Origin: Mycetohabitans rhizoxinica HKI 454
Lineage (GTDB): Bacteria; Pseudomonadota; Gammaproteobacteria; Burkholderiales; Burkholderiaceae
Direction: 5' to 3'
Length of the DNA stretch: 64,000 bases
Assembly: GCF_000198775.1 (NCBI RefSeq)
Contig: NC_014718.1
Location: 469,881 to 533,880 of the forward strand
Below, one piece after another: positions 19,194-62,048 of this stretch. Position 1 is the first letter of the stretch. Every line of letters begins with the position of its first letter. The position numbers and the translations under genes are program-made. The notes under the pieces are model-generated. The model saw only the letters and a program-made list of their open reading frames with translations. It did no database searches and was not told where the DNA came from.

Positions 19194-19329
19194 TCGCAAG
19201 TTCAGCAAGAGGTTAAACACACGCAGCACAAAGCGATGCTGCGCCGTAAGATAGCTGAAAGCGGGCGGATGAACGTAATTGTGAGCCGCAATCCCTAAAT
19301 TTTTGGCGGATAACCCGTTGTCGGCTAGA

Positions 19330-19760
19330 GCCGCCGGATCGCCACAATCTGCTGATTTCGCTCGCCGAGTCGTTGAACAAAGCGCTCGATGTGCCGCTTG
19401 TTGTCGTGGGTGAGCAACGCCGTGCCCCGGCCCAATAACTAACAGCCTACGCGGCGAGGGCAAGGCACCGCTCGCGGCACATACGTGCGTCGCTGCTGCG
19501 TGGGCGCACAGGCTTGTCGCCAAGGTTGGAGGGCTTGACGCACGATGCCGCAACTGCCTTCGAATCCCTGAGCTGCGATCACCGAATATTAGCTCGCCGC
19601 ATTTGATAACCTTCACGCCAGCGCTGGGCAAGATAGGCTCGATAGGGATCCAGCTTGCTGGTCGCTAGCGGGCGCTACGCCCGTTCGGGAAACTCGCCGG
19701 CATGAATCCAGTGCCGGACCGTGTGCCGGTCCGCTTGCCGACGCCTGTACTGCTGTTGTT
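19330..19760 (-). mobile_element. ISL3-family transposase remnant
   Basis: Minus-strand reading from about 19745: RRQADRHTVRHWIHAGEFPE, RA, stop, then TSKLDPYRAYLAQRWREGYQ. This is the helix-turn-helix and following block typical of ISL3-family transposases ('S-R-x-T-V-R-R-W-L-x-A-x-x-F-P-E-R ... S-x-L-D-P-Y-x-x-Y-L-x-x-R-W'). Stops and frameshifts follow. A second ISL3 remnant from a different part of the protein lies at about 62.74-63.31 kb. Confidence 0.6.
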
Positions 19761-20437: not shown

Positions 20438-21841
20438 TTGAGTACGCACCAAATTGCGGTTTTCCTGGGGCCCTCCTGCCCCCTTGACGAAGCCAGAACC
20501 CACCTGGCCGACGCCGATTACTTTCCTCCTGCCGCGCGCGGCTCCTTTTACGACATTATCAATGACGGTTATCAAATCATTGTCCTAATTGATGGGTTCT
20601 TTTACGGAAAACTATCAGTGTGGCATAAGGAGATTCTCTACGCCCTCGACTCCGGCATCGTCGTCATTGGGGCATCAAGCATGGGCGCGCTAAGAGCGGC
20701 CGAGCTTCAAGGCACCGGAATCATTGGAGCGGGCACGATCTTCGGCTGGTATCGCGACGGACTGATTGATGGCGACGACGAAGTCGCCCTGCTACACGAA
20801 AGCACTCAGGACAACTACACTGGGTTGACGATCCCGCTCGTTAATCTGCGCTGGCAACTCATGCGTGCCGTGGAGGATGGCCTGATTGACTCGCGCAGCG
20901 AAGCATTGATCATCGATCGTGCCAAGCAGATGTGCTTTACGGAAAGAACCCTCGAAGGAATACTCGAGCCGTTGCGGGACGTGATCGATATCGGGGCCGT
21001 CAAAACCACGCTTTCTAACGGAACCGACCTCAAGAAAAGCGACGCCATTCTCGCGCTCAAGCTGGCCGCTGAGCACAGGTCATCAGCGGGCGCCCCGTCT
21101 TCGCTCAGGCTGCGTGAATATGAATATGCCCACATGAACCTCGGGATCGAGTATTACACGAGCGAGCGGCTGACATCGATTAAGGCAAAAGGCAGTGCCG
21201 GCGCGATACCCCTCGCCGAATATTTGGGCAGGACAGAGGCGGATCAGATCGGCTACCGTGACCTGATCAGGGCGCGTGTCTGCCAGCGGCTGATCGTGGG
21301 GTGGGCCAGGGAACTGCATCTCGACGTCGGGAACGAGGACGATATCGGCCTCGGCGCGTCGCCTTGGAACGTACAGGTGCTCGATCTTGAGCACCGGCGC
21401 GCGACCGGCCTGACACTGATCGATATTGCTCGGGAAAGCCGTGATGCCGAGTTCAGTCGCCGCATCCAGCAGCGTTTCTGCCGCACCGCCGGTGCCAGTC
21501 AGGTCATTGCTGACATCGACAAGCGGTTGGCGGCGCAGGTCCAGGATGCGCCTATCCCATGGCGCCGCATGGTGGATCTCACCGGGGACCTTGTCTACAC
21601 GATGTGTTGCCTAGGCCTCGAAAAGGGCATCGGCCCCGCGCCGCAGGAAGTGCAGCCGTGCGGCGCGCGATGGGAGGACGACGCCATTCTGACCGATGCC
21701 GAGCGCATCATGGCGTATGCCGAATGGATCTATCAGGTCGGTCCGCGCCTGTTTGGCTATGTCCTCGACCCTGCGCGCGAAGTACTGTTGGCCCATCAAT
21801 ATTTGAATTGCCTGGATCGGCTCGACAGGAGAGCACCATGA
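20438..21841 (+). CDS. TfuA-like protein, YcaO partner for backbone thioamidation
   Basis: 467 residues from TTG 20438, chosen because GGGAG lies 7 nt upstream and the protein then begins STHQIAVFLGPSCPLDEA, the usual TfuA start. An in-frame TTG at 20393 lacks a ribosome binding site. The first 200 residues are a full TfuA domain: YFPPAARGSFYDII, VLIDGFFYGKLSVWHKEILY, VVIGASSMGALRAAEL and GDDEVALLHE. The C-terminal 270 residues are an extension I do not recognise. TfuA proteins work with YcaO enzymes to put sulfur into peptide backbones (thioviridamide, methyl-CoM reductase thioglycine), probably by presenting the sulfur donor. The stop overlaps the YcaO start by ATGA, so the two are coupled. 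First gene of the operon. Confidence 0.9.
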   Translation: MSTHQIAVFLGPSCPLDEARTHLADADYFPPAARGSFYDIINDGYQIIVLIDGFFYGKLSVWHKEILYALDSGIVVIGASSMGALRAAELQGTGIIGAGTIFGWYRDGLIDGDDEVALLHESTQDNYTGLTIPLVNLRWQLMRAVEDGLIDSRSEALIIDRAKQMCFTERTLEGILEPLRDVIDIGAVKTTLSNGTDLKKSDAILALKLAAEHRSSAGAPSSLRLREYEYAHMNLGIEYYTSERLTSIKAKGSAGAIPLAEYLGRTEADQIGYRDLIRARVCQRLIVGWARELHLDVGNEDDIGLGASPWNVQVLDLEHRRATGLTLIDIARESRDAEFSRRIQQRFCRTAGASQVIADIDKRLAAQVQDAPIPWRRMVDLTGDLVYTMCCLGLEKGIGPAPQEVQPCGARWEDDAILTDAERIMAYAEWIYQVGPRLFGYVLDPAREVLLAHQYLNCLDRLDRRAP

Positions 21842-23067
21842 CTTTGAGTCCCGCCACATCGCACGAATATGCGCAGGGAACGCAGCGCGTTTGCGCGCCC
21901 GAAGAAACACTGCGCAGGATCCAGCCCGTTCTCGCCCGCTGCGGCATCACGCGCGTGCTGGACGTCACCCAACTCGACCGCATCGGCATCCCAACCTATA
22001 ACGCAATCCGGCCCAACGGCATCATCCTGAGTATTTCTAACGGCAAGGGATGGTCCAGCGCCGCGGCGGCTGTTTCGGCAATCATGGAATCGATTGAGGT
22101 TGAGCATTCTGAGTACCCAGACACCTCGAGCTGGCGCCTGGCCACGAGCGCGACGGCCCTGCGCACGGAAGGTCTTGACCCGGTCGATCCGACCACGCTG
22201 ATCCGTGACTGCTTGTGGCCCAAAGATGAATATGGCGGACTTTACTATACGCCAGAACTCGTGCTGGACTGGGTCGAGGCGGATGAACTGATCAGCGGGA
22301 ATAAGGTGATGATTCCGGCAAGCACAATCTACGCCGTCCCGCCGTTCCTACAATATTTCACCAGCAACGGCCTGGCCAGCGGCAATACCTATGCGGAGGC
22401 GGTCCTTCATGCCATTTGTGAGATCGTCGAACGTGACGCGATTGCCAAGCTCATGGGCAGAACCAAGGATTCCCCGCCGTCGCGCCTGCGCCCGATCCGC
22501 CTGGACAGCTTGCCGGGGCATCTCGTCAAGCTAGCCGAACTGATCACCTCGGGCGGAATCGAGCTGTTCCTGTTGAGCATGCCGAGCGCGATCGACATTT
22601 ACACATTCTGGACGATCTTTTACTGTCCCGGCGAGCCGGCATTCATCTTGAGCACGTCCGGCGGCTATGGCACCCACCCCGATCCAGTGATCGCCGCATC
22701 CAGGGCGCTTACTGAGGCGGCTCAGGCACGCTTGGCCCATATTCATGGCGCGCGCGAGGACCTGGGAATCGATCATGTCAACCGACAATTGCCCGCGTCG
22801 GAGCTGGAGCAACGATCGGCCCTGCAGGTACGAAGCTTCGACAAGTTCCGAACCATGCCGGCCTGGAGCTGGGACGAGATGTTGCAGGTCTATCCCCACC
22901 GTTGCAAGGGCCGGAACATCCAGGGCAGTCTCGATCAGGTGTTGGAGATGCTGGCTGGAGCGGGCAGCGACAAGGTCTATGTTCATGACCTGACCAAGCC
23001 CGATCTCGACCTTGCCGTGACCCGCGTCTTCATTCCCGGCATGAAGATCTGCGCAAGCATGCTGTGA
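21838..23067 (+). CDS. YcaO cyclodehydratase/thioamide synthetase (TfuA-paired)
   Basis: 409 residues from ATG 21838; AGGAG lies upstream and the start overlaps the TfuA stop. The frame is open further upstream (to 21559), but that is a shadow of the tfuA gene. YcaO ATP/Mg-binding motifs are present: SISNGKGWSSAAAAVSAIME with ESIEVEH, and ICEIVERDA after SNGLASGNTYAEAVLHA. YcaO enzymes activate a backbone amide with ATP; with TfuA the nucleophile is usually sulfide, giving a thioamide. It lacks the Pro-rich C-terminus of azoline-forming YcaOs and ends in ICASML. Its substrate is probably the Nif11-type peptide at 28559-28792 (-). About 75 bases separate it from the oxygenase gene. Confidence 0.92.
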   Translation: MTLSPATSHEYAQGTQRVCAPEETLRRIQPVLARCGITRVLDVTQLDRIGIPTYNAIRPNGIILSISNGKGWSSAAAAVSAIMESIEVEHSEYPDTSSWRLATSATALRTEGLDPVDPTTLIRDCLWPKDEYGGLYYTPELVLDWVEADELISGNKVMIPASTIYAVPPFLQYFTSNGLASGNTYAEAVLHAICEIVERDAIAKLMGRTKDSPPSRLRPIRLDSLPGHLVKLAELITSGGIELFLLSMPSAIDIYTFWTIFYCPGEPAFILSTSGGYGTHPDPVIAASRALTEAAQARLAHIHGAREDLGIDHVNRQLPASELEQRSALQVRSFDKFRTMPAWSWDEMLQVYPHRCKGRNIQGSLDQVLEMLAGAGSDKVYVHDLTKPDLDLAVTRVFIPGMKICASML

Positions 23068-23142
23068 AACCGGGCGCCGGCCCGACGAAGCTGTGTAAGC
23101 GGGCCGGCTTGGCAGCCCGTTCGATCACCGAGGAGAATGTGG

Positions 23143-24087
23143 ATGCCGCCCGTCGCCGAGCGCCCCAGCGAAACGCCGTTTGGAGAATTGTTGCGGTTAG
23201 CCGAACTGCATCCGGCCTGGAGCTTGCTGCAGGTGATTGAATTGCTCGATCGCGAGCGCTGGGATATCGAAACACTTACGCCCGCGCAGCGCGCACTCTA
23301 CGGGCGGATCAATGCACGCGCCGCGCTGGCCCGGTTGCACGGGTCGGTCGACGACTTCCAGTCCGGCCACGCTCTCGACGCGCCGGCCCGATCGCCGCAG
23401 TGGCTGGCGACCGGCCGTCACCTGTGCGTCAGCGGCCTGCTCGATGCGCAGACGCGCGCGCGACTGGTCGCGCAATGTGACGCGACACTGAGCGTGCCGG
23501 GGACGCCACCGATCAGGCTGTTCAGCCACCCGGATTGCATGGACCAGGCCGAGCTTCGGTCGATCGCGAGCGCGGTGCTGGCGGCGCTGCCTGATCCACT
23601 GCCGCCAGGGACCCGCCCGACCATTCTCAAACGGCGGACCATCCTTCGCCGCACGTTCCCGCCGAGCAGACTGCCATCGCAGCCTGGCAATGCCAACAAC
23701 CAGTTCTGGCACCAGGACAGCAACGCCCAGTTCAATGACTCCCCCATGCTGACGCTGTGGATTCCGCTGCAGGACCACGCTGGCGTGACCAGGCCAGGCC
23801 TGCAGATCAGCGATGCTCCGGTCGCCAATTTTTCGATCTTCCACGGCGACTCATCGCATGACATCGGTCCCATGCTGGCACAGATGTTTCCCGCATCGCA
23901 GATTGTCTCTCCGCAGGTGGCGGCCGGCGAGTGTCTTGTCTTCAACGGCCTGACCTTCCACCGGACCCTCGCCACCCCGGCGATGGCGGAGCATCGCGAT
24001 GCCCTGTTGATCCGCGTGCTCGACCAGCGAACCGCGCATCGATTTCCGGTCGCCGATCATGACCAGGATCTGCTGCCCCTTGCATGA
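23143..24087 (+). CDS. 2-oxoglutarate/Fe(II)-dependent oxygenase (phytanoyl-CoA dioxygenase-like)
   Basis: 314 residues from ATG 23143, which is 7 nt after AGGAG at 23131-23135; an ATG at 23137 is too close to it. The double-stranded beta-helix region carries the iron ligands: NNQFWHQDSN (H-x-D), the distal His in VFNGLTFHRTLAT, and a 2-oxoglutarate-binding Arg in RDALLIRVLDQR. The N-terminal 90 residues are a helical extension (ELHPAWSLLQVIELLDRERW), perhaps for peptide binding. It would hydroxylate the peptide, as an oxygenase does at histidine in thioviridamide; the residue here is unknown. The gene overlaps the next by 29 bases. Confidence 0.85.
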   Translation: MPPVAERPSETPFGELLRLAELHPAWSLLQVIELLDRERWDIETLTPAQRALYGRINARAALARLHGSVDDFQSGHALDAPARSPQWLATGRHLCVSGLLDAQTRARLVAQCDATLSVPGTPPIRLFSHPDCMDQAELRSIASAVLAALPDPLPPGTRPTILKRRTILRRTFPPSRLPSQPGNANNQFWHQDSNAQFNDSPMLTLWIPLQDHAGVTRPGLQISDAPVANFSIFHGDSSHDIGPMLAQMFPASQIVSPQVAAGECLVFNGLTFHRTLATPAMAEHRDALLIRVLDQRTAHRFPVADHDQDLLPLA

Positions 24088-25018
24088 ACTTACCGTCCAT
24101 GTGGTGGGCACCGGCGCGGTCGGCCTGGCCTATGGCTACCTGCTGACGGAGCGTGGGCATCGCGTCTTCCATTCCAGCCTGCGCGGCCGGGTAACTTCGG
24201 CATTGCCGCTCAGCCTGCAAACCGGCACGGGCACGACGCATGGATGCTACACGCCCCGGTATTGGCACGACACACCGCAGGCATCGATACCGCATGTGCA
24301 GATCTTCGCCGTGCACGGCGCTCAGCTCGCGCCCGCGTTGCAGCTTTGCGGTGGCGCACTGGCGCCACAGGCATGTCACCTCGTGTTCTGTAGTAACCCG
24401 GACGCTGTCAACGCCGCGTGGCGACGGGTGGCGGCCGACAGCTACACACTCGTCTATCCATTGCTGTCGGCGGAGCATTGCGGTGACCAGGGGCTGCGCA
24501 TTATCACAAATGGCGAAGTAGAAATCACTCTGCCACAGGGCAAGCCCATTGGCGAGCGGATAGCGCTGAAAGCGCTGCTGGAGCGCATGGGATTGACGGT
24601 ATCGGGCGACGTGCCGCTGTCCCGCTTCCGAGCCCGTTACCTCCAGACCGCCGCAATCTATATTGCCCTGCTCGCCGTCAGCGTCGGAGCCATCGACCAC
24701 GCCCAAGTCGATGGCGCGCTGCTGTCCGCCATCCACGACGAGCTCGCGGCGATGGTCGAACGGCGCGACGGGGCACGCGTTGCCGACGTTCCCGGCCAGG
24801 CCCGCCATTTCGCTTCACTGGCTGCACTGATTGCCGCAGGAGAGCGCGACGGTGCGATGCTGGGCGCCACCCTCGAATACCTAGTCCGTGACGGACGCCG
24901 CAAGCTGACCGCGCATCTGGCTGCCATTACACCGGCATGGGACGACCATCTCGCGGCGCGGCCGGCGACGGCGAGCCAGCGCCTGATTTCCGCCGTCCTC
25001 GCCCTGTGCCGACTATGA
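24059..25018 (+). CDS. Ketopantoate-reductase-like (ApbA/PanE family) NADPH reductase
   Basis: 319 residues from ATG 24059, overlapping the oxygenase gene by 29 bases. The Rossmann motif VHVVGTGAVGLAYGYLLTERG is at the N-terminus (G-x-G-x-x-G), shown here shortened: GTGAVGLAYG. The expected NADP/substrate stretch VFCSNPDAVNA and a helical C-terminal domain with RYLQTAAIYIALLA follow. The family reduces 2-oxo acids such as ketopantoate to 2-hydroxy acids. It is unlikely to be the housekeeping panE because it is embedded in the RiPP operon. A fitting role would be reduction of the 2-oxobutyryl cap formed after an N-terminal dehydrated Thr is exposed; this is inference. Confidence 0.8.
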   Translation: MTRICCPLHELTVHVVGTGAVGLAYGYLLTERGHRVFHSSLRGRVTSALPLSLQTGTGTTHGCYTPRYWHDTPQASIPHVQIFAVHGAQLAPALQLCGGALAPQACHLVFCSNPDAVNAAWRRVAADSYTLVYPLLSAEHCGDQGLRIITNGEVEITLPQGKPIGERIALKALLERMGLTVSGDVPLSRFRARYLQTAAIYIALLAVSVGAIDHAQVDGALLSAIHDELAAMVERRDGARVADVPGQARHFASLAALIAAGERDGAMLGATLEYLVRDGRRKLTAHLAAITPAWDDHLAARPATASQRLISAVLALCRL

Positions 25019-25194
25019 AAGCGAACGCGGACCATCAACCAATGGACGTGCCATCTAATTATCGGCCTGCCGATCGCCGCTTCCAATGATCACTCTGATA
25101 TGATCGTTGATGTTGCCGAACAGTCGTGATTTCCTGGGACCGCCAACGTCATGCGTGGCGGGCTGTCATGTTGTCAAAACTGGAGGAGCCGAGA

Positions 25195-25467
25195 TTGAAT
25201 ACCGTTACTGTCATTGTGCCTCCATCGATGCGCAAGTTCCTGGGCGGTCGCACACGTGTGCCTGTACAGGCCGAAACGGTACGAGGAGCGCTTGACGCAC
25301 TGGCTGGCGGATCAGACACGCTGCGCGGTCATTTATTCGATCAGACCAACGCCATCAATCGTTTCGTGCGGGTGTTTGTCAACGGCCGGCAGATCCATTC
25401 GAGCGCCGAGGAACCGGTGAGCGATGGAGCCGAGGTGACGATCCTGGTTGCGCTGGCGGGAGGCTGA
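25195..25467 (+). CDS. ThiS/MoaD-like sulfur-carrier protein
   Basis: 90 residues from TTG 25195, preceded by GGAGGAG at 25182-25188 with 6 nt spacing. An upstream in-frame ATG at 25126 has no such site. It has a beta-grasp ubiquitin-like pattern (NTVTVIVPPSMRKFLGG, FVRVFVNGRQIH, DGAEVTILVALAGG) and ends exactly in Gly-Gly. That C-terminus is what E1-like enzymes adenylate and turn into a thiocarboxylate. The stop at 25467 is immediately followed by the start of its predicted activating enzyme at 25469. It should carry sulfide equivalents for the YcaO/TfuA step rather than for thiamine or molybdopterin, since no such genes are nearby. Confidence 0.88.
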   Translation: MNTVTVIVPPSMRKFLGGRTRVPVQAETVRGALDALAGGSDTLRGHLFDQTNAINRFVRVFVNGRQIHSSAEEPVSDGAEVTILVALAGG

Positions 25468-25468
25468 C

Positions 25469-26626
25469 ATGACGCTACAACAACAACGCCTGGCGCAACT
25501 GAAGGCCGAGATTACCGAGATCGATCCGCGTGAAGCGGCGCAACGCCTGGCTGCCGGTGCGATCCTGCTCGATATTCGCGATACCGACGAATGGGCGCAA
25601 GGCACGCCGGTCGCCGCCGTCCGTGTGGGCCGTTCCTTTCTCGAGCAGCAGATCGAAGGGGTGGTTGCCGATCCCGACACAGCGCTAATGATCTTATGCG
25701 GCAGTGGCGTGCGCTCGCTGTTCGTGGCCGATGCCCTGAAAAGGCTCGGCTACCGGTCGGTGGCCTCGGTCGCGGGCGGGTTCCAGGCATGGACTGAGTG
25801 TGACCTACCGGTCGAACGCCCAAAAATCCTCAGCGCCACCGAGCGGGAACGCTATGCACGTCACCTGCGCATACCCGAAGTCGGGGAAGCCGGCCAGGCC
25901 AAGCTGCTGGCGCGACGGGTAGCGCTGGTCGGCGCCGGGGGGCTGGGTTCACCAATTGCCTATTATCTTGCCGCAGCGGGCGTAGGCACGCTCGGACTGA
26001 TCGATGACGATCGCATCGAACGCAGCAACCTGCAGCGGCAAATCCTCCATACCGATGCGCGCGTCGGCCAATCGAAGGCTCGCTCGGCAGCTGAAACGCT
26101 GACGGGCTTTAATCCAAATGTGGCGCTGGTCCTGCATGAGGTACGGCTGGACAGCGCGAACGCCGAGGCCATACTGGCCGATTATGATCTTGTCATCGAT
26201 GGTAGCGACAACATCGCCACGCGCTATGTCGTCAACGATGCCTGCGTGAAGCACGGTATCCCCATGATTTACGGGGCGATCTTTCGCTTTGAAGGCCAGG
26301 TATCGGCATTCCATCCGGCCGGGCCAAACGGTGGGCCGTGCTATCGCTGCCTGTTCCCCGAGCCGCCACCACGCGACTTGACTCCCTCGTGCGCCGAAGC
26401 CGGCGTGCTTGGCGTGTTACCGGGCGTGATCGGCACCCTCATGGCCACGGAGGCCCTGAAGATCCTGCTGGGCATCGGCGAGCCGCTCGTAGGACGCCTG
26501 CTCACCTACGATGCACTGAGTGAGCGCTTCGACGAACTGCGGCTGGAGGCCAGCCCGGACTGCCGGTGGTGCGCGCCGCACCGCCGCGATCGCCCGACAC
26601 TGAACATCCCGGCATTGACGGAGTGA
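25469..26626 (+). CDS. Rhodanese-ThiF/MoeB fusion: sulfur-carrier adenylyl/sulfurtransferase
   Basis: 385 residues from ATG 25469 (GGGAGG upstream). Residues about 15-115 form a rhodanese domain with active-site Cys in LMILCGSGVRSLFVAD. Residues about 125-385 are a ThiF/MoeB E1-like domain: ERYARHLRIPEVGEAGQ, the nucleotide loop VGAGGLGSPIAYYLAAAG, NLQRQILH, VIDGSDNIATRYVVND, zinc pairs CYRC and CRWC, and TPSCAEAGVLGVLPG. It would adenylate the Gly-Gly end of the preceding carrier and load persulfide sulfur onto it. The rhodanese domain is N-terminal, the reverse of MoeZ/MOCS3-type fusions, though this order does occur in some MoeB proteins. Confidence 0.9.
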   Translation: MTLQQQRLAQLKAEITEIDPREAAQRLAAGAILLDIRDTDEWAQGTPVAAVRVGRSFLEQQIEGVVADPDTALMILCGSGVRSLFVADALKRLGYRSVASVAGGFQAWTECDLPVERPKILSATERERYARHLRIPEVGEAGQAKLLARRVALVGAGGLGSPIAYYLAAAGVGTLGLIDDDRIERSNLQRQILHTDARVGQSKARSAAETLTGFNPNVALVLHEVRLDSANAEAILADYDLVIDGSDNIATRYVVNDACVKHGIPMIYGAIFRFEGQVSAFHPAGPNGGPCYRCLFPEPPPRDLTPSCAEAGVLGVLPGVIGTLMATEALKILLGIGEPLVGRLLTYDALSERFDELRLEASPDCRWCAPHRRDRPTLNIPALTE

Positions 26627-26629
26627 CGC

Positions 26630-27280
26630 ATGCGGACCCCAATCCCCCCGTTGCCGGACGCGGGGCCTACGGCCGCGTCCTCGCCGCTCAGCGTGAAGCA
26701 AGCGTTCCGTTTCGCGCCAACCGATCAGGGTCACATCGACCAGCTGCTCGTCTGGGCCGAGTTGCCTATCGGGGCAAACGTGCTCGACCTGGGCGCCGGC
26801 AACGGCTGCGTCGCGGCACGGATGCGAGCGCGGCGGCCCGACTTGTCATTCTGTCTGGTCGATCAAGATCGCCGCGCGCTTGATGCCGCGGGATCTACGT
26901 GGCACACGCATTGCGCTGATATTTGCAACATACCCGAGCCCAACGGCAGCTTCGACGCCTTGCTCTGCTGCTATGCAATGGGCTATGTGCCGACAGCGGA
27001 TTTTTTCCGCGAAGCGGCAAGGGTGGCGCGGCGCGGCGCGGTGGTGTTCATCGTCGACATGGTGCCGCTTGATGGCACGCTCGACTCACTGTCGCTGTTC
27101 GGCTATGCGATTCGTGGCCGGACCAACGTTGAGTCGCATGCGGCATCGGCAGGTCTAAAGCTGGATTTCTATTTGGAACCGACAGACGATCGTAGTTGGG
27201 GAGAAGCCCAGTTCCCTGGTTATTTTCATATCTTGTTCGGTGAGGTGCGGCCGGCCATCTGGCGCTTCACACTGCCCTAG
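26630..27280 (+). CDS. SAM-dependent class I methyltransferase
   Basis: 216 residues from ATG 26630, 4 bases after the upstream stop. SAM-binding motif I is VLDLGAGNGCVAARM. The motif II region is FCLVDQDRRAL, and a post-motif stretch FDALLCCYAMGYVPTADFF resembles small-molecule methyltransferases of the Methyltransf_11/25 type. It is the last gene of the rightward operon. It could N-methylate or O-methylate the peptide, but the target cannot be read from sequence. Convergent with the second YcaO gene, with a GC-rich hairpin between them. Confidence 0.85.
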   Translation: MRTPIPPLPDAGPTAASSPLSVKQAFRFAPTDQGHIDQLLVWAELPIGANVLDLGAGNGCVAARMRARRPDLSFCLVDQDRRALDAAGSTWHTHCADICNIPEPNGSFDALLCCYAMGYVPTADFFREAARVARRGAVVFIVDMVPLDGTLDSLSLFGYAIRGRTNVESHAASAGLKLDFYLEPTDDRSWGEAQFPGYFHILFGEVRPAIWRFTLP

Positions 27281-27287
27281 CGCAATC

Positions 27288-27306
27288 GCCCCCGCTGGAC
27301 AGGGGC
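27288..27306. terminator. Possible bidirectional terminator hairpin
   Basis: GCCCC and GGGGC arms enclose a short loop between the convergent methyltransferase and YcaO genes. There is no T-run, so it is a weak candidate; the position between converging operons is the main support. Confidence 0.3.
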
Positions 27307-28482
27307 TCAGGAGAACAACGATTCAAATTCCGGAATCACGCATTTGACGACCGCGAAGGGGCGGTGTGGCGGCGAAAGCGTCCATGACAGAACATGCGAG
27401 ATGCCCGCCTCGCGCGCGAGAGAGAGGACCTGTTCCAACGCCACCGGAGCGGCAGCCAGCGTGCCCTCGTCGGCTTCGCCCAAGGACGCTGGCGCGCTGC
27501 GGCAGGCGCGCAGGTGCGCATGCAGAATCTGCTCGCCCACTGGCGAGCCCGACTTCAAGCCCATGAGTTGCTCGCTGGAGAGCAACATTCCCCCCTTCAT
27601 CCGCGCTGGCGGGATGTTGCCCAGCTGGCAGGCAGCACGCGTAGCCCAGCCCTGCACGGCTTCGGCAAGCGCACGCGCCACCGCAATCGACAGGCTGTGA
27701 TGTGCACCCCAGCCGAAGTGCACGTCCGACCGTCCAGCCTTCGCAGCTGTCAGGGGCGACAATGCGCACTGGATGACCGTGACCCCCAGTGTCCATCCGA
27801 GCAGAAAGAATTCGCTGCGCCAGCCAGCCTGTTCAATCTCGTCCAAGGCTTTGCGCAACGTCAACGGAATATCCTCCAGGGCGATGGACAATACTTGCCC
27901 TAGCGCCCGCAGGCTTGATGCCGCCACATGACGTTCGAGCAGCTCGTAAATGGCGTGCAGACGCGCTTCGGCCAATGAATTGCCGCTTGCCAGACCGTCA
28001 GTCGACAGGTGGAGCCTTTCACCACCCCATTGCTGGGGCAAAAAATTTTCGTCGACATAGCCATACACTTGCATCGACGTCAACAAGTCCACGCCGCCAA
28101 TTACAGGACGATGTCTCTCTTTATCATCAAGCATGCCAGCGCGTTGAGCGGCTTTTCTCGCCGCAGTATAGACAAGAGATACCGGGGCCAGGTCGCCCGT
28201 GCTCAGAACCGGCACCTGCGGCGCCTGTTCGATAGTAGATACTTCGATCGCCTCCATATAGCCGGAAGCGAGCGCGGCGTCGAAGCCGAAACCCTTGCCC
28301 AGGTTGAGATAACCCGATCTCGGATTGCCCCTAAATACTTCAATGGAGCGAATGGACGCAATGCCGGCCGGTGTATGTTCGGCATAGCCATGGATATCGT
28401 ACTCGGCGAGAATGGGACCAATTGACGACAGGGTGTCGGTTGCGGTGATCAGGCGCATCGACGTCACTAGATTGGTTGGCAT
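27307..28482 (-). CDS. Second YcaO-domain protein, next to the precursor gene
   Basis: 391 residues from ATG 28482, with AAGGATGG upstream. The YcaO motifs are present: GYLNLGKGFGFDAALASGYM followed by EAIEVSTIE, and LASGNSLAEARLHAIYELLE with ERH. It is clearly diverged from the YcaO at 21838-23067 and has no TfuA of its own. It lies 76 bases downstream of the Nif11-type precursor and is probably co-transcribed with it. It may install a second modification (another thioamide set, an azoline or an amidine) or form a heterodimer with the first YcaO. Which one is not decidable here. Confidence 0.9.
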   Translation of the reverse strand: MPTNLVTSMRLITATDTLSSIGPILAEYDIHGYAEHTPAGIASIRSIEVFRGNPRSGYLNLGKGFGFDAALASGYMEAIEVSTIEQAPQVPVLSTGDLAPVSLVYTAARKAAQRAGMLDDKERHRPVIGGVDLLTSMQVYGYVDENFLPQQWGGERLHLSTDGLASGNSLAEARLHAIYELLERHVAASSLRALGQVLSIALEDIPLTLRKALDEIEQAGWRSEFFLLGWTLGVTVIQCALSPLTAAKAGRSDVHFGWGAHHSLSIAVARALAEAVQGWATRAACQLGNIPPARMKGGMLLSSEQLMGLKSGSPVGEQILHAHLRACRSAPASLGEADEGTLAAAPVALEQVLSLAREAGISHVLSWTLSPPHRPFAVVKCVIPEFESLFS

Positions 28483-28558
28483 GGCAGCGCCATCCTTATG
28501 CTTCAGCTAAACGGCGCCGCTCAGGCACATCGGTCCAATCCCAAGCCGCGCCGGCTGC

Positions 28559-28792
28559 TTACTTGATGAGGGCCGCGGCCATCGGGGTACCGACAGAGAC
28601 GGATTCGAGTTCTTCATCCGTCAGGTCGGTATCGCTGTTGACCAGAGCCTTGGCCAAGTCCGCCTCCGACAAGCTAATGCCTTCGGCTTGGGCGACCGAG
28701 ATGATTTCACTCGAATTGGCACAGTTCTTGATTTTCTTAACGAATTCCGGATCAGACTCCAACTTGGTGCGAAACTGCTGAATTGAACTCAT
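28559..28792 (-). CDS. Nif11-leader RiPP precursor peptide, core TPMAAALIK
   Basis: 77 residues from ATG 28792 with GGAAGGAAAC upstream. The first 60 residues are a Nif11-type leader: SSIQQFRTKLESDPEFVKKI, then AQAEGISLSEADLAKALVNS. It ends LTDEELESVSVG, equivalent to the usual 'L-S-D-E-E-L-E-x-V-x-G-G' with the first Gly replaced by Val. Cleavage after this motif would leave TPMAAALIK. The core has one Thr, no Ser and no Cys; the only Cys is in the leader. T-x-M-A-A-A recalls S-V-M-A-A-A of thioviridamide, a thioamidated RiPP. It is first in a leftward operon with the second YcaO and divergent from LanM. Cleavage site inferred. Confidence 0.88.
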   Translation of the reverse strand: MSSIQQFRTKLESDPEFVKKIKNCANSSEIISVAQAEGISLSEADLAKALVNSDTDLTDEELESVSVGTPMAAALIK

Positions 28793-28842
28793 AATAGTTT
28801 CCTTCCAATAACTCGTTGTAAAATGACCAATACTACGCTGAT

Positions 28843-28878
28843 ATTTATAGTTGATATTGGCATAACAGGCAAGATAAT
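28843..28878. promoter_or_regulatory. Overlapping divergent sigma-70-like promoters for precursor and LanM
   Basis: For LanM (+): TTGATA at 28851-28856, 16 bases, GATAAT at 28873-28878. For the precursor (-): TTGCCT (28872-28867), 17 bases, TATAAA (28849-28844). The two boxes interleave in an AT-rich 180-base intergenic region, so the -35 of one overlaps the spacer or -10 of the other. Predicted by eye only. Confidence 0.5.
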
Positions 28879-28976
28879 GTTGTGGTCGCCTTCAATAATT
28901 TGAGCTCGCGAACAACATCGATGTCAGCGGCTCATAGCGCGCATAAAAATGCACCCAATCGCGCCGCCTGCCGCCC

Positions 28977-31900
28977 ATGGAAAACGCAAACATGAGTTTC
29001 CGCTCACCACCCCTCCCACTGTCTCCACCATGGCAAACGGCGCTGGCTGGCGAGGCTCCGTTCCCCAATACCGACGACGATGCGTGCCGCGAGATACTGG
29101 CGCAACTCTGTGAGGCGATCAAGGCGTCAAGCTCCAGCGCCTGGCACCTGGAAGACGTGGCACTGTCGGCTTCGGGTCAGCAGCTTCCCTTCGTCGACCT
29201 GTGGCGACCGGCCGTGAACGCAGCGCTGGCATGGTTGCACCTTCGCGTCGATGCATCACTCGGCGCGCCGCCTGCGGCCCCGGCAGATCGGGATTTGGCC
29301 GACACATTGCTGGCACGACTCTGCCTGCTGAGCCAGTACGCGGTTTGGGAACTATTCAAGGCCGATTGCGGCGTGGGTATGGCGGTTTGCGCTTGTTTTG
29401 GCGTCGATGATGATCGGTCCGGGCCGCCGTCGCGCGAACGCTACCGGAGCTTCATCCAGCAGCATCGCAGCGACGGTCTAGCGAGGCTGTTGGGCGATTT
29501 CCCCGTGCTTGGGCGCCTGCTGGCGCAGACCGTCATGTTTTGGCTGGACAGCAGCGCAGAAATCCTGCTGCGGGTGCACGACGACCGCCAGGTCTTGCTG
29601 GCCGAATTCGGCATACCCGTGCATGCCCGCCTGGTCCGGATCGGCCAGGATAGCGGTGATCGCCACCGCCACGGGCGCACAGTGGCAATGCTCGGCTTTT
29701 CGGATAACAGGCAAGAGTGGAAAGTCGTGTACAAGCCGCGAGACATGGCAATCGATTTTGCATTTCAGCGCCTGCTCGGCGACCGTGACGTTATCGCTCA
29801 TTTGCCTGCGCTGGCATCGCTGAAAGTGCTGCCAAGGGCTGGCTACGGGTATATGGAGGTCGCCATGCACCACCCGTGCGCCGATGAACAGGCGCTCTCG
29901 CTGTTCTACCTGCACGCCGGCCGGTTGTGCGCCATCCTGTATGTGCTCGGTTGCACCGATGGCCATCATGAAAACCTGATCGCGAGCTCAACCAACCTGT
30001 TCCTGATCGACGCCGAAACACTGTTCGAGCCCGTGGTACGGGCGGACCTGCGGGCCGTATCACGACCGGACTCGGTGCTGCTCGGTTCTGCCTTGCAAGC
30101 ACGTTTCGAGGAATCGGTCGCGCGCACCGAACTGTTTCCCGTTTGGTTATTGGTGAGCACGCAACGGCAAGCGATCGATACCAGCGCGTTTGGCGTTGCC
30201 TCATCGGCGCTCGAGTGTCGTCCAGTCAGCGGTTGGCGGAACATCAACTGTGACGCCATGACGTTCGGCACGGTCGACGTCCTCGATCAGCAGCCTGCCA
30301 GTTTACCGGTGGGGCGAGGACAAGCTAATCCCTTTGCATGCCACCTTGCGACTTTCAGCGAAGGCTTCCGGCTGCAAGGCAGCGTCATCATCAGGCAACG
30401 CGACGCCTGGCTGAAGACCGGCGGTATCCTGGACCGTTTCGCAGGCCTCACCGGGCGCGTCGTGTTACGGGCAACGCGTATCTATTCCGCAATCGGGCAG
30501 CAACAACTACAGGCCGGCGCCCTTCGCTCCGCGCATGCGCAGCGGCTCACGCTCGAGCCGCTGGCGCGACTGTTTTCGACCTCGGCTTCGCCCCTGGAGA
30601 ACTGGTCGGCGCTTGCAGCTGAGCGATCTCAGATGGCGCAGCTCGACATTCCATATTTCACCCACCGCCTCGACCAGAATTGCCTACTGCTGGGGACCGG
30701 CGAACGCGCCATCGAGGGCTATTTCGAAGCGAACGGACTGGACGATTGTCGGCGCCGCCTGCAGTCATTGGACCTTGATGTTATCGAATTCCAACTGTTG
30801 GTGATCGATGGACTGGTCGCCGCAAAAACGCTCAGGGCCCATGCCGGCCCGGTCGGAGAAAGGGCGTCGCCAACGCCGCAAGCGCGGCCTTTGTCCCCGG
30901 ATGAACGCCTGCACATGGTCCGGTCCGTCGCTGCTGACCTGGTTGGCCGCATCTTCGACGATCGCCCCGAGTGGCTGGGTTTCGACATGGCGCGGGACGG
31001 CCGGCGGTTTCATTTCCGCCCGCTGGGGTTGTCGCCATATAGCGGTACGCTGGGCATTGCTGCTTTCTTTGCCTGCCTTGCCGGTTCACCGCTCGCACAG
31101 TCGTCGCGATTCGGCCTCGATGTGTGGGTCAAGCGCATGATCCAACCGCTCGAGGTGCTGGCGGGGCAACCCGGCGCAGCATTGTCTCGATGGTGGCGTG
31201 ACCAGCCGCTCGGTCTTGCAGGATGTGGCGGTCAGTTACTCGCGCTGATGGCCATATGTGCGACCAACATCGCACCGTCGGCAGCGAGTGCAGGGCGGGA
31301 GCTGGCGTCCAGGCTGCTGGAGGGCTTAGACGAAAGATGGCTTACCAACGCGGCGCTCGACTTGATCGAAGGCGCCACCGGCTTAGTCGGCCCACTGCTG
31401 ATGCTTGATTCGGATAACGCGCTACGCATCGCAATGACCATCGGCGATCGCTTGGTACATGATGCGTGCGCCTGGTACCCGATGACGGATGCGCAGCGGG
31501 GCCTCGCTCCACATTCGCCGGGATTTGTCGCAGGGGCGTCAGGCATGATAGCCGCGCTGACGCGGTTACATCATCACACCGGCGTCAACCGGTATCGCGA
31601 CTGCGCCCAACGGTTGCTTACGCATGACCGAAGCACACTGGGCATCGGCAACGACGGATGGGAGAGCAGATTCTCGCTTGCCCTGGGGGGTAACGACGCC
31701 TTGCATCACAGCTGGTGCCATGGACTAGCCGGCGTGGCTCTCGGACGACTCAGCATGTTCGAAACCGAGTTGTGGGAGGCAACGGCGGAGCGCGAGCTCG
31801 ACGCAATCCTCGCTTCGCTGTGCGCTGCAGCGTCGCCAGCTGATCACGTATGTTGCGGCCAGTTCGGCGCCATCGCCGTGCTACGGATTGCCCAAGATAT

Positions 31901-32123
31901 GTTGAGAAAAAGGGCATGTGAATCTCACGCTGAGCAGCTAGAAGCCGCGGCGGTGATGGGCATGATCCGAGATCGAAACCATTTGGCTGTGCGTTCACAC
32001 GGGCCAGGAAAGCATCATCTGGGACTCATGAACGGCCTCAGTGGCATTGGGCTAGTGTTAACCGACAACCGCGTTAGCCGGGCGATGTTAAAGACGCTGC
32101 TTGGAGGCGGTCTTTTAGGTTAG
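28977..32123 (+). CDS. Class II lanthionine synthetase (LanM) with Cys-Cys-Cys zinc site
   Basis: 1048 residues, normal LanM length; ATG 28977 (an ATG at 28992 is possible, neither with a strong ribosome binding site). The N-terminal DUF4135 dehydratase carries WKVVYKPRDMAIDFAFQRLL, RAGYGYMEVAM, the D-G-H-H-E-N block (GCTDGHHENLI) and LIDAETLFEP. This part phosphorylates Ser/Thr and eliminates the phosphate. The C-terminal LanC domain carries HHSWCHGLAG (Cys914) and HVCCGQFGA (Cys959, Cys960). A Cys-Cys-Gly zinc motif is a hallmark of ProcM-like enzymes, which also use Nif11-type leaders. The only visible substrate has one core Thr and no Cys, so dehydration without thioether formation is likely. 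No LanT exporter or peptidase lies next to it. Confidence 0.93.
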   Translation: MENANMSFRSPPLPLSPPWQTALAGEAPFPNTDDDACREILAQLCEAIKASSSSAWHLEDVALSASGQQLPFVDLWRPAVNAALAWLHLRVDASLGAPPAAPADRDLADTLLARLCLLSQYAVWELFKADCGVGMAVCACFGVDDDRSGPPSRERYRSFIQQHRSDGLARLLGDFPVLGRLLAQTVMFWLDSSAEILLRVHDDRQVLLAEFGIPVHARLVRIGQDSGDRHRHGRTVAMLGFSDNRQEWKVVYKPRDMAIDFAFQRLLGDRDVIAHLPALASLKVLPRAGYGYMEVAMHHPCADEQALSLFYLHAGRLCAILYVLGCTDGHHENLIASSTNLFLIDAETLFEPVVRADLRAVSRPDSVLLGSALQARFEESVARTELFPVWLLVSTQRQAIDTSAFGVASSALECRPVSGWRNINCDAMTFGTVDVLDQQPASLPVGRGQANPFACHLATFSEGFRLQGSVIIRQRDAWLKTGGILDRFAGLTGRVVLRATRIYSAIGQQQLQAGALRSAHAQRLTLEPLARLFSTSASPLENWSALAAERSQMAQLDIPYFTHRLDQNCLLLGTGERAIEGYFEANGLDDCRRRLQSLDLDVIEFQLLVIDGLVAAKTLRAHAGPVGERASPTPQARPLSPDERLHMVRSVAADLVGRIFDDRPEWLGFDMARDGRRFHFRPLGLSPYSGTLGIAAFFACLAGSPLAQSSRFGLDVWVKRMIQPLEVLAGQPGAALSRWWRDQPLGLAGCGGQLLALMAICATNIAPSAASAGRELASRLLEGLDERWLTNAALDLIEGATGLVGPLLMLDSDNALRIAMTIGDRLVHDACAWYPMTDAQRGLAPHSPGFVAGASGMIAALTRLHHHTGVNRYRDCAQRLLTHDRSTLGIGNDGWESRFSLALGGNDALHHSWCHGLAGVALGRLSMFETELWEATAERELDAILASLCAAASPADHVCCGQFGAIAVLRIAQDMLRKRACESHAEQLEAAAVMGMIRDRNHLAVRSHGPGKHHLGLMNGLSGIGLVLTDNRVSRAMLKTLLGGGLLG

Positions 32124-32165: not shown

Positions 32166-33006
32166 TCAGCAACTGAACCAAGCGCAGTCGTCGCGCAGCC
32201 GACTGTAGTAGGTATTGACGTTTTGTACGTGCGGAGCCAGACGGGGGAATAGGTGTTCGTGCAATTGCTGGGCTGTCACTGGACCTTTGCTGGGCACGAA
32301 GTCCAGCGTTTGTCTAGCACGGTCGCGTGCGACGAGGATGTACACCTGTTCGTTCAAAATCCGGCCGGATGCGGTCCTTTGTGAATAGATTGTGGTAACG
32401 AAGCCGGCACCGAAGACGACCTGGCCGCGATTGGTAAGGACCCGGCCATTACTGTCAATCAACCAGCCCCAGTGTTCCAACGTCTTCTCCGAAATCGCCG
32501 CAGCGAAAGACTTCTTCTCTTGAGGGGTTAAAGCAGCGTCTGGTTGCGCAGGGGCAGTGGCGAGCGCCTCCGGGCCGCTGAGGACCAGGACTGAATTTTT
32601 CGAGGCAAGATGTCGTGCCGCAAGCAACTGCGCTCTGGTGGACTCTAGATCGGCTATTAGCAGGTTGATGCGAGCGCGGAGGACCGGATCCGAGACGCCC
32701 TCAAGGAGTTCGTCAACCGCAGAGGATTTCGGGGGCCGCACCTTTTTTCTTCCGTCCGCCAGCATGATCGGCGTATGCGGCAATCAATGCGCGGTACCGT
32801 TCGCCGGTCTTGTTTCGGATGGCCGGCGCGCTCGGGCCGCCCCGGGCGTTTGCCAATTTTCCGATGGTGGCTACCGAATAGTCCGCGCTGCGGCGCTCTT
32901 CCTGTTCCTGGCAGACTTAAAAGATGATTCGCAGGGATGCGGCCGTTCTCGGATGCGCGTCCTTGCATAGTTCACCGAGCAATTGAGTGGGGTCAGTCTT
33001 TTTCAT
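32166..33006 (-). pseudogene. GmtX-like gene of a gamma-mobile-trio element, stop plus frameshift
   Basis: From ATG 33006 the minus strand reads KKTDPTQLLGELCKDAHPRT, then SLRIIF, a TAA stop, then VCQEQEERRSADYSVATIGK and GGPSAPAIRNKTGERYRALI. A frameshift in the A-run near 32750 leads into the last 200 codons (PPKSSAVDELLEGVSDPVLR, RAQLLAARHLASKN). The layout matches my memory of GmtX, part of the GmtX/GmtY/GmtZ trio of integrating elements. The downstream 618-base frame could still give a truncated protein. Family assignment is from memory. Confidence 0.5.
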
Positions 33007-33009
33007 ACA

Positions 33010-61628: not shown

Positions 61629-62048
61629 CACATGGACTCCAAATTTGATCAATGATTTATTCGATTTCAAGGGCGTGAGTCCACCTATCCCCTCACGCGT
61701 CACACATAACCGCCTCGTCTCCGGGCAATCGCTTTGGTTTACCGCGGGGTGTCTTCACCAAGCTGATCCGGATCAAGTCTGTACCCCGTTTTCGCACCTG
61801 GCTCCTCCGGCGGAATCGGACATTATTTGAGTAACCAGTTCTTGTCAACAAATTGAAAGCCATTTGGTAATTTCGCGCTTATCATTAAGATACTTAACTA
61901 ACATCGGAAAATTTTACAAAACATGGATGACGGATTCTTGTCTCTGATTGCCGCAGGAGGAGGAGTAAGGTGGATCTCACGGGCCTGCGGCATTGAATTG
62001 CCAAAGTGGAAAATGCACGCATTTCTCAGCAGCCGGGAAAACCCACAA
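61629..62048. other. Upstream region of the giant NRPS
   Basis: No gene supported. This stretch must hold the NRPS promoter; 61830-61920 is AT-rich. I could not choose a single promoter. Confidence 0.3.

What the first reader, a model, noticed from the sequence alone, without database searches (positions are those of the whole stretch)
20438..32123. A Nif11-leader, LanM-plus-YcaO/TfuA hybrid RiPP locus: candidate new thioamide peptide class
Seen directly: TfuA, two YcaOs, 2OG oxygenase, ketopantoate-reductase-like enzyme, Gly-Gly sulfur carrier, rhodanese-ThiF, methyltransferase, a Nif11-type precursor and a full LanM within 12 kb. Known: TfuA+YcaO make backbone thioamides; Nif11 leaders normally serve LanM (prochlorosins) or azole YcaO pathways. 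Inference: one pathway combines a class II lanthipeptide dehydratase with thioamidation. The set parallels thioviridamide-type clusters (dehydration, YcaO/TfuA, oxygenase, methyltransferase) but with unrelated dehydration and leader parts, and it adds a dedicated sulfur relay. I know of no described example in proteobacteria.
Basis: partly seen in the sequence, partly recalled or inferred. Interest (0 to 1): 0.95.

Follow-up and report, generated by a model that had tools for sequence, protein, structure and literature searches.

The report
LanM-primed thioamide peptide of bacterial symbionts
A fungus-dwelling bacterium and several root-nodule bacteria carry the same ten genes, which are predicted to turn one nearly unchanging nine-residue peptide end into a sulfur-containing (thioamide) compound; the lanthipeptide enzyme would only remove water from its first residue, which likely remakes the front end of the Streptomyces thioamitides with different enzymes.

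Summary
TfuA, two YcaOs, a PhyH-type oxygenase, a ketopantoate-reductase-like protein, a Gly-Gly sulfur carrier, rhodanese-MoeB, a methyltransferase, a Nif11 precursor and a LanM all lie at 20438-32123, in Mycetohabitans rhizoxinica. The halves belong together: YcaO2 and LanM lie at most 14 kb apart, with TfuA, in 24 of 24 plasmid records from three genera, in three layouts.

The precursor ends T[P/V/I]MAAAL[I/V]K and has no cysteine in that stretch, so no Cys-based lanthionine is possible there. LanM dehydratase-motif residues are the same in 62 of 62 homologues compared. Cyclase zinc ligands are changed in 6 of 13 members of this LanM clade and 1 of 45 others, but are kept in Mycetohabitans.

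Best reading: LanM dehydrates Thr1, leader removal gives a 2-oxobutyryl cap, the reductase may reduce it, and ThiS/MoeB/TfuA/YcaO install backbone thioamides. The thiostreptamide S4 core begins Ser-Val-Met-Ala, and thioamitide clusters have no Lan proteins. This locus lacks their macrocycle genes, so it works like a thioamitide without being one. Nif11-TfuA clusters and a different LanM/YcaO/TfuA hybrid are already in print. It is a new variant; the chemistry is untested.

The parts
20438..21841 (+). TfuA (467 aa); sulfide delivery to YcaO1 (inferred)
   Evidence: PF07812 1.8e-40; solved TfuA 6xp8 1e-36; about 49-50% identical copies in Rhizobium/Sinorhizobium
21838..23067 (+). YcaO1, the TfuA-partner thioamidation YcaO (start 21838; inferred function)
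   Evidence: PF02624 2.5e-65, methan_mark_1 1.6e-63 below its cut-off; best solved relative MJ1094 7.4e-29
23137..24087 (+). PhyH-type 2-oxoglutarate/Fe oxygenase
   Evidence: PhyH 8.7e-4, under cut-off; conserved WHQD and FH in three genera
24059..25018 (+). ketopantoate-reductase-like protein; candidate reductase of an N-terminal 2-oxoacyl group
   Evidence: ApbA 1.5e-4, under cut-off; GxGAVG conserved; weak Foldseek matches to ketopantoate reductases from a low-confidence model
25168..25467 (+). ThiS/MoaD-type sulfur carrier ending ALAGG
   Evidence: PF02597 1.2e-07; C-terminal ALAGG in the three genera aligned
25469..26626 (+). rhodanese-ThiF/MoeB fusion, activates and sulfurates ThiS (inferred)
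   Evidence: PRK08762 2.2e-169; 66-67% identical one-piece matches in rhizobia
26630..27280 (+). class I SAM methyltransferase
   Evidence: PF13649 1.3e-11; present in 11 of 11 loci examined
27307..28482 (-). YcaO2, second YcaO, directly downstream of the precursor gene; role unresolved
   Evidence: PF02624 5.7e-34; 30-sequence group with conserved Glu/Asn/Gln motifs
28559..28792 (-). Nif11-leader precursor peptide (77 aa)
   Evidence: TIGR03798 2.6e-13; 11 related proteins listed
28562..28588 (-). predicted core TPMAAALIK (residues 69-77), after Gly68
   Evidence: last nine residues nearly invariant in 12 of 12 aligned precursors; rhizobial TIMAAALVK
28977..32123 (+). LanM class II synthetase (1048 aa), divergent from the precursor; predicted Thr1 dehydratase
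   Evidence: TIGR03897 2.8e-167, DUF4135 6.5e-88; only DUF4135 in the host genome; residues compared

Best explanation
This 12-kb locus, whose ten genes are also found together on Mycetohabitans, Rhizobium and Sinorhizobium plasmids, likely encodes one peptide pathway that is predicted to make a short thioamide peptide capped by a dehydrated threonine, with LanM acting as a dehydratase and not as a ring-former. Proposed order, all steps inferred from families and anatomy: (1) the Nif11 leader presents the core TPMAAALIK; (2) the rhodanese-MoeB protein charges ThiS-COOH to a thiocarboxylate, TfuA releases its sulfur, and YcaO1 (perhaps with YcaO2) replaces backbone oxygen by sulfur along the X-Met-Ala-Ala-Ala stretch; (3) LanM phosphorylates and eliminates Thr1, the only Ser/Thr of the core, to dehydrobutyrine; (4) cleavage after Gly68 frees an enamine that hydrolyses by itself to a 2-oxobutyryl cap, which the ketopantoate-reductase-like enzyme may reduce to 2-hydroxybutyryl; (5) the PhyH oxygenase and the methyltransferase tailor the chain, possibly at the C-terminal Lys, a basic residue at the tail end as His12 is in thiostreptamide S4. 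Shown here: gene content, linkage, core conservation, lack of Cys, conservation of dehydratase-motif residues, and loss of zinc ligands in part of the clade. Not shown: any chemistry.
For: Linkage: YcaO2 relatives at 47% identity or more (24 records) have TfuA (24 of 24) and LanM (24 of 24), the YcaO2-LanM gap being 0.5-14.0 kb; 23 of 24 give a precursor match and the 24th has a Nif11 gene annotated as 59 aa. Three layouts: LanM divergent beside the precursor (window, L085, L089), LanM last on the same strand in R. leguminosarum, LanM convergent at the far end in Sinorhizobium. Controls: of 79 further loci with the next-nearest YcaOs, 72 hit TfuA and 0 hit LanM or the precursor; 0 of the 4 distant YcaO plasmid records are among the 36 LanM records. 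Core: 12 of 12 aligned precursors end GT[P/V]MAAAL[I/V]K, no Cys; rhizobia TIMAAALVK. Between Mycetohabitans and R. leguminosarum, 34 of 58 N-terminal codons are non-synonymous but 2 of 9 core codons. LanM: seven dehydratase-motif residues are the same in 62 of 62; zinc ligands are S/H/S in rhizobia and changed in P0058, P0062 and P0104. On a tree of 58 rows, ligands are changed in 6 of 13 rows of the clade that holds this LanM (at least three times) and in 1 of the other 45, P0093. Precedent (PMC8153245, passages): TsaA starts Ser1-Val2-Met3-Ala4, with thioamides proposed at Val2 and Met3; an S1T variant gives 2-oxobutyryl; natural Thr1 is predicted; TaaRed reduces the pyruvyl cap; the paper says no Lan proteins are in thioamitide clusters; archaeal TfuA hydrolyses thiocarboxylated ThiS.
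Against: No metabolite, expression or enzyme data. The Mycetohabitans LanM and its closest relatives (P0053, P0054) keep all three zinc cysteines, so ring-closing chemistry is not excluded there; one LanM outside the clade, P0093, has also lost ligands. The thioamitide likeness is partial: the same paper gives Ile3 and Phe5 for thioalbamide and Ile6 for thiostreptamide S4, so Met-Ala-Ala-Ala is not a fixed thioamitide mark. YcaO2 has no assigned role. No protease or transporter is among the ten genes of the Mycetohabitans locus; the Sinorhizobium C1 peptidase has no match in the host genome. The reductase call is weak: under the Pfam cut-off and a low-confidence model (pLDDT 48.7). In 8 of 11 Rhizobium records TfuA is in pieces or partial, and in 2 of 11 Sinorhizobium records it is in two pieces, which is decay or assembly error. 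R. etli NXC12 keeps a truncated LanM and a C1 peptidase without YcaO2 or close TfuA. A Streptomyces LanM with a higher identity to the window LanM (38%) than the rhizobial ones (35%) has no YcaO/TfuA beside it, though it falls outside the clade. The 24 records come from only three genera, many of them near-identical strains. TfuA was found in 1 of 8 genomes of the genus.
Confidence: 0.68

Rival explanations
1. Ring-forming reading: LanM dehydrates Thr1 and its cyclase domain joins dehydrobutyrine to the Lys9 side-chain amine or another nucleophile, giving a cyclic thioamide peptide.
For: Zn ligands C914/C959/C960 are intact in Mycetohabitans and in 7 of 13 clade members; the C-terminal Lys is invariant in 12 of 12.
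Against: Ligands are changed at least three times in the clade, in rhizobia beside an almost unchanged core; a Thr1-derived ring would leave no 2-oxoacyl group for the reductase.
Confidence: 0.13
2. Two independent pathways that share an island: LanM acts on other precursors, while YcaO/TfuA alone uses this Nif11 peptide.
For: Nif11 leaders serve LanM elsewhere (recalled); R. etli NXC12 has a LanM remnant without YcaO2 or close TfuA.
Against: Only one Nif11 and one DUF4135 match in the host genome; 24 of 24 linkage with three layouts; LanM and YcaO2 relatives share longest-contig lengths 8656, 97776 and 2833368 (precursors also on the first two), which suggests the same contigs.
Confidence: 0.07
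3. Azole/dehydrazole reading: one or both YcaOs make azolines and LanM dehydrates next to them.
For: LanM plus YcaO is the hallmark of dehydrazoles (PMC10676384).
Against: The core has no Cys and one Ser/Thr; no dehydrogenase of the azole type matched among the ten genes; YcaO1 and YcaO2 lack a Pro-rich C-terminus (motif recalled); these LanMs score as TIGR03897 and barely as class III.
Confidence: 0.04
4. YcaO2 is the leader-processing enzyme (ATP-dependent peptidase) and YcaO1 does all thioamidation; otherwise as in the best explanation.
For: No protease among the ten Mycetohabitans genes; YcaO2 directly follows the precursor in the window and in the annotated relatives; a solved YcaO, MusD (7u58), is a distant match, and YcaO peptidase activity is recalled from the literature, not read here.
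Against: Sinorhizobium carries a C1 peptidase beside LanM and still keeps YcaO2; MusD is only a distant match.
Confidence: 0.15

Closest known systems
Thioamitides (thioviridamide, thiostreptamide S4, thioalbamide)
   Same: YcaO plus TfuA; pfam05721 oxygenase; pfam13649 methyltransferase in the tsa cluster; thiostreptamide S4 core beginning Ser-Val-Met-Ala, Thr1 in some predicted cores; N-terminal dehydrated residue giving a 2-oxoacyl cap, reduced in thioalbamide; a C1A peptidase gene in the tsa cluster (not essential in the heterologous host) and a C1 peptidase beside LanM in Sinorhizobium.
   Different: Nif11 leader; LanM in place of HopA1/phosphotransferase dehydratases; two YcaOs; dedicated ThiS/MoeB; nine residues, no Cys, so no AviCys macrocycle, and no cysteine decarboxylase matched; ApbA-like and not pfam00106 reductase. 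Thioalbamide has Ile3 and Phe5.
Nif11-TfuA clusters of Malit et al. 2021 (Desulforegula, Anabaena, Rhizobium, Simkania, Ruegeria) and Tha-1 of D. conservatrix
   Same: Nif11-like precursor with TfuA/YcaO; figure legends of that paper also label MoeB, ThiS, phytanoyl-CoA dioxygenase and extra ycaO genes in TfuA clusters; Tha-1 gained one thioamide in E. coli.
   Different: 'LanM' does not occur in the main text; split lanthipeptide dehydratases are mentioned for azole/thiopeptide-type clusters. A GG cleavage motif is described; here the site is [V/S/T]G. Whether their Rhizobium example is this cluster could not be checked (supplements not readable).
Dehydrazoles (carnazolamide; Nakamurella LanMbC/YcaO/TfuA cluster)
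   Same: A LanM dehydratase domain beside a YcaO; the Nakamurella cluster adds TfuA and a core with adjacent Ala residues that its authors compare with thioviridamide.
   Different: LanMbC has a class III, zinc-independent cyclase; NHLP-like leader; cores rich in Ser/Thr/Cys; a dehydrogenase. Here a TIGR03897 LanM with zinc ligands in Mycetohabitans, Nif11 leader, one Thr, no Cys.
Prochlorosin-type LanM with Nif11 leader
   Same: Nif11 leader (association recalled); C/C/C zinc site in the window; nearest LanM relatives outside the clade include Synechococcus LanMs.
   Different: No Cys in the core, so no Cys lanthionine; zinc site changed in part of the clade.

Membership tests
Thioamitides | YcaO-TfuA pair | tested here: met
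Thioamitides | core starting Ser/Thr-X-X-Ala with an N-terminal dehydrated residue | tested here: inconclusive
   Sequence start T-[P/V/I]-M-A-A-A resembles Ser1-Val2-Met3-Ala4 of TsaA (PMC8153245); thioalbamide differs at 3 and 5; dehydration itself not testable
Thioamitides | HopA1-like/phosphotransferase dehydratase genes | tested here: not met
   No such Pfam match among the ten proteins
[quoted passage not shown]
   No Cys in the core; no decarboxylase match among the ten proteins
Class II lanthipeptides | LanM synthetase | tested here: met
   TIGR03897 558 bits, cut-off 304
Class II lanthipeptides | lanthionine, needing Cys in the core | tested here: not met
   0 of 12 aligned cores has Cys
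[quoted passage not shown]
   Zinc ligands C/C/C in the window; class III model 34 bits against cut-off 575. Rhizobial LanM has lost the ligands but its class III score is 25 bits
Thioamidated (TfuA-YcaO) RiPPs, Nif11 type | Nif11 precursor beside TfuA and YcaO | tested here: met
Thioamidated (TfuA-YcaO) RiPPs, Nif11 type | a backbone thioamide in the product | not testable with these tools
   needs mass spectrometry

The most novel reading that the evidence does not exclude
A separate RiPP class, the LanM-primed mini-thioamitides: Nif11-led, nine-residue, macrocycle-free polythioamides made by fungal and legume symbionts. Here a prochlorosin-type lanthipeptide synthetase has been recast as a dedicated maker of the N-terminal 2-oxoacyl cap, so that Proteobacteria converged on the same Thr/Ser-X-Met-Ala-Ala start as thiostreptamide S4 with a different leader, dehydratase and reductase, for a shared role in living inside eukaryotic hosts.
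Probability: 0.45. Interest if true: 0.88.

Novelty: new variant of a known kind. Interest (0 to 1): 0.73.

Why it matters
If true, it shows a lanthipeptide synthetase losing its ring-forming job and being reused to cap a thioamide peptide, and it links two RiPP worlds in organisms that can be cultured and deleted. It explains a gene left open in print: the 2011 genome paper noted one lantibiotic-related gene on the megaplasmid with unclear function (PMC3102044, passages), which is very probably this LanM, the only DUF4135 protein in the host genome. A nearly fixed nine-residue product in fungal endosymbionts and on rhizobial plasmids, including pSymA of S. medicae ml29, makes a role in symbiosis directly testable.

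Tried and rejected
Lanthionine hybrid: rejected as the default because none of 12 cores has Cys. Azoles: no substrate residue beyond Thr1 and no azole dehydrogenase matched among the ten genes. Housekeeping MoeB/ThiS: they move with the cluster in 11 of 11 loci examined. Housekeeping YcaO/TfuA: no other copies in the host genome.

Led nowhere: the search for related loci with YcaO1 (no relative confirmed); with the YcaO2 alignment it found 446 relatives and kept the best 80: one close locus, L005, and 79 distant ones, which served as controls. Order and phylum scans found YcaO2 in 2 of 300 genomes (own, and a 31% match) and the precursor in 1 of 398 (own). A text search for a thioamitide core string found no paper. 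TfuA structure prediction was too poor to use (pLDDT 36.1), so the 250-residue C-terminal part of TfuA stays unexplained. The reductase model is poor; its Foldseek list (17 ketopantoate reductases and one D-mandelate dehydrogenase among the 18 matches with E <= 0.001) is only a hint. PMC8084935 on TfuA is not held.

Full report
What is there. The window lies in a 3.75-Mb genome. Copies 97-100% identical per protein are on the megaplasmids of Mycetohabitans rhizoxinica strains B49 and B12, whose records give the fungus Rhizopus microsporus as source, so the host is taken to be that species. Two gene names are soft: the PhyH oxygenase and the ApbA-like reductase both score just under Pfam's cut-offs.

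One pathway or two. The second YcaO (YcaO2) is the best marker. In the plasmid collection 28 records match it at E <= 1e-15, 24 of them at 47% identity or more. All 24 also carry TfuA and LanM, with YcaO2 and LanM 0.5-14.0 kb apart. The precursor matches in 23 of 24; the remaining record, CP140854, has a Nif11 gene annotated as 59 aa. The records are 2 Mycetohabitans, 11 Rhizobium and 11 Sinorhizobium, so they are three lineages and not 24 independent events. In R. leguminosarum ATCC 14479 the order is Nif11-YcaO2-TfuA-YcaO1-oxygenase-reductase/ThiS-MoeB-methyltransferase-LanM on one strand. In Mycetohabitans, LanM is divergent beside the precursor; in Sinorhizobium it is convergent at the far end, past insertion sequences in S. 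medicae ml29. Linkage that survives three layouts argues for common use. Of 11 loci examined gene by gene, all have the other nine genes; LanM lies within the fetched stretch in 8, lies further out in L088 and L095, and L005 ends before it.

Controls. The next-nearest YcaOs (79 loci, L006-L084; the best of 446 found) carry TfuA in 72 cases and give no LanM or precursor hit in any (some loci end at contig edges, and the short precursor limits sensitivity). None of the 4 distant YcaO plasmid records is among the 36 LanM records. The host genome has no second Nif11, TfuA, DUF4135 or YcaO outside the locus.

The precursor. Eleven related proteins were listed, one of them from M. rhizoxinica itself at 99%. 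In the 12-row alignment the last nine residues are TPMAAALIK in 11 and TVMAAALVK in one; rhizobia have TIMAAALVK, and one L005 copy runs on into other sequence. Gly precedes the core in all 12. Between Mycetohabitans and R. leguminosarum, codons 1-58 show 34 non-synonymous changes and 11 synonymous ones; the nine core codons show 2 and 3, so the core is held at the protein level. The pattern [S/T][V/P/I]MAAA occurs only 3 times outside the precursors in 2.44 million residues of long reading frames of the fetched loci (loci overlap, so this is only a rough background).

Meaning of the core. The core has one hydroxyl residue, Thr1, and no Cys, so a Cys lanthionine cannot form in it. In the thioamitide thiostreptamide S4 the core begins Ser1-Val2-Met3-Ala4; thioamides are proposed at Val2 and Met3 and shown at Ala5 and Ile6; Ser1 dehydration and leader removal are taken to yield the pyruvyl group; an S1T variant yields 2-oxobutyryl; predicted natural thioamitides with Thr1 exist; and co-expressed TaaRed gives the lactyl form (PMC8153245, passages read). 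The likeness has limits: thioalbamide has Ile3 and Phe5. The same paper states that no Lan proteins are in thioamitide clusters, assigns His hydroxylation to TsaJ (pfam05721) and Tyr methylation to TsaMT (pfam13649), and describes TsaK as a C1A protease whose deletion did not stop production in the heterologous host. Our locus has PF05721-like and PF13649 proteins, and all 11 Sinorhizobium cluster records carry a C1 peptidase near LanM. These shared families are consistent with shared chemistry and do not prove common descent.

LanM as a dehydratase. The window LanM is a full TIGR03897 protein. Seven dehydratase-domain motif residues (roles recalled from CylM-type enzymes; correspondence partly visible against LicM2) are identical in 62 of 62 sequences. 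The cyclase zinc ligands are C/C/C in 52, missing through truncation in 2, and changed in 8: four rhizobial rows (S/H/S), P0058, P0062, P0104 and P0093. A first quick tree of 40 rows gave a 13-row clade with the Mycetohabitans and rhizobial LanMs and three changes inside it. On checking, a larger quick tree of 58 rows, with P0093 and a Streptomyces LanM included, gave the same 13 rows (SH-aLRT 99): ligands changed in 6 of 13 there and in 1 of the other 45, four changes in all. The tool warned of long branches in both. P0062 shares its longest-contig length (2,833,368) with YcaO2 relative P0014, so it probably belongs to such a cluster. Against this reading, Mycetohabitans itself keeps all three cysteines.

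Sulfur supply and thioamidation. ThiS ends in ALAGG in the three genera aligned, and the rhodanese-MoeB protein is 66-67% identical in one-piece matches. TfuA and YcaO1 match the solved TfuA 6xp8 and the archaeal YcaO MJ1094. PMC8153245 reports that an archaeal TfuA hydrolyses thiocarboxylated ThiS to feed its YcaO. A full relay is therefore encoded here. YcaO2 keeps the conserved Glu/Asn/Gln positions of its family; its role is open.

Reductase. The ApbA-like protein keeps GxGAVG. A low-confidence model (pLDDT 48.7) still gives 17 ketopantoate reductases and one D-mandelate dehydrogenase among its 18 matches with E <= 0.001. Both enzyme types act on 2-oxo acids (recalled), which fits the predicted cap. 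This is a hint only; the tool warns that low-confidence models give meaningless matches, and the catalytic residues were not established.

What is in print. The 2011 genome paper (passages read) noted a lantibiotic-related gene on the megaplasmid, closest to cyanobacteria, with unclear function. A 2025 comparative study names lasso peptides for the genus; its main text has no hit for RiPP, lanthi, thioami or TfuA (find plus one section read; figures and tables not seen). Malit et al. 2021 report Nif11-like precursors in TfuA clusters of several genera, Rhizobium among them, and their figure legends label MoeB, ThiS, a phytanoyl-CoA dioxygenase and extra ycaO genes in TfuA clusters (passages and two sections read). 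A survey of plasmid metabolites reports thioamitide-related clusters on Rhizobium plasmids (passages). The dehydrazole paper reports LanMbC-YcaO clusters and one with TfuA in Nakamurella (passages), and says that all LanMs it found beside YcaO lack the zinc ligands, which is not so for the Mycetohabitans LanM. Ayikpoe et al. 2022 (first author recalled; PMC9576775) made Tha-1 with one thioamide (passages). My searches for Nif11 with LanM and TfuA, TfuA with lanthipeptide synthetase, Nif11 with thioamide and Rhizobium, Mycetohabitans with lanthipeptide and TfuA with leguminosarum returned listings in which, by titles, abstract starts and the passages read, I saw no description of this combination; only open-licence papers were searched, most listed papers were not opened, and supplements could not be read.

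Weak points. No product is known. In 8 of 11 Rhizobium records TfuA is in pieces or partial, and in 2 of 11 Sinorhizobium records in two pieces, while ATCC 14479 and Tp73_4 give one-piece matches for all ten genes. R. etli NXC12 has a LanM remnant and C1 peptidase without YcaO2 (E <= 1e-15) or close TfuA (E <= 1e-60). A Streptomyces LanM at 38% identity stands without YcaO/TfuA but lies outside the clade. TfuA is present in 1 of 8 genomes of the genus (four of the other seven are only 1.1-1.2 Mb), so the cluster is patchy and probably mobile.

Verdict. A real, single, conserved cluster; most likely a thioamitide-like RiPP pathway that uses a class II lanthipeptide synthetase as its dehydratase. 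New variant of a known kind; it fails two defining features of thioamitides and the defining feature of lanthipeptides, so it works like the former and is not filed as either.

Noticed in passing
L097:23877-25064; plasmid records: A C1 (papain-type) peptidase near LanM in 11 of 11 Sinorhizobium cluster records, and beside the LanM remnant of R. etli; candidate leader protease, not matched in the R. leguminosarum-group or Mycetohabitans records. Residues 10-129 match cyanobacterial proteins annotated as hypothetical.
   Followed up: partly
L088, L095, L005 and records: Precursor genes are amplified in tandem in Sinorhizobium (2-8 places per record) with nearly the same core; one L005 copy has a different core end.
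   Followed up: partly
L086:16734-17915: In R. leguminosarum ATCC 14479 the reductase and ThiS matches lie in one reading frame and are annotated as one 'MoaD/ThiS' protein; in Tp73_4 they lie in different frames.
   Followed up: no
20438-21841: TfuA carries about 250 residues after the TfuA domain with no Pfam match; conserved in rhizobia. Structure prediction failed.
   Followed up: partly
17769-19631: 620-aa reading frame with an F-box match just under the Pfam cut-off (20.2 against 20.5 bits); F-box proteins are annotated beside the cluster in B49 and B12 too. Eukaryote-like domain in a fungal endosymbiont.
   Followed up: no
41928-61703: 6591-aa reading frame on the minus strand; the 2011 genome paper mentions a very long NRPS gene, possibly another one. 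Not scanned here.
   Followed up: no
62156-62303: Group II intron D1-D4-7 (Rfam RF02012, 79 bits) just beyond the long reading frame.
   Followed up: no
32166-33983: Minus-strand reading frames between LanM and the waaC region; the three scanned have no Pfam match.
   Followed up: no
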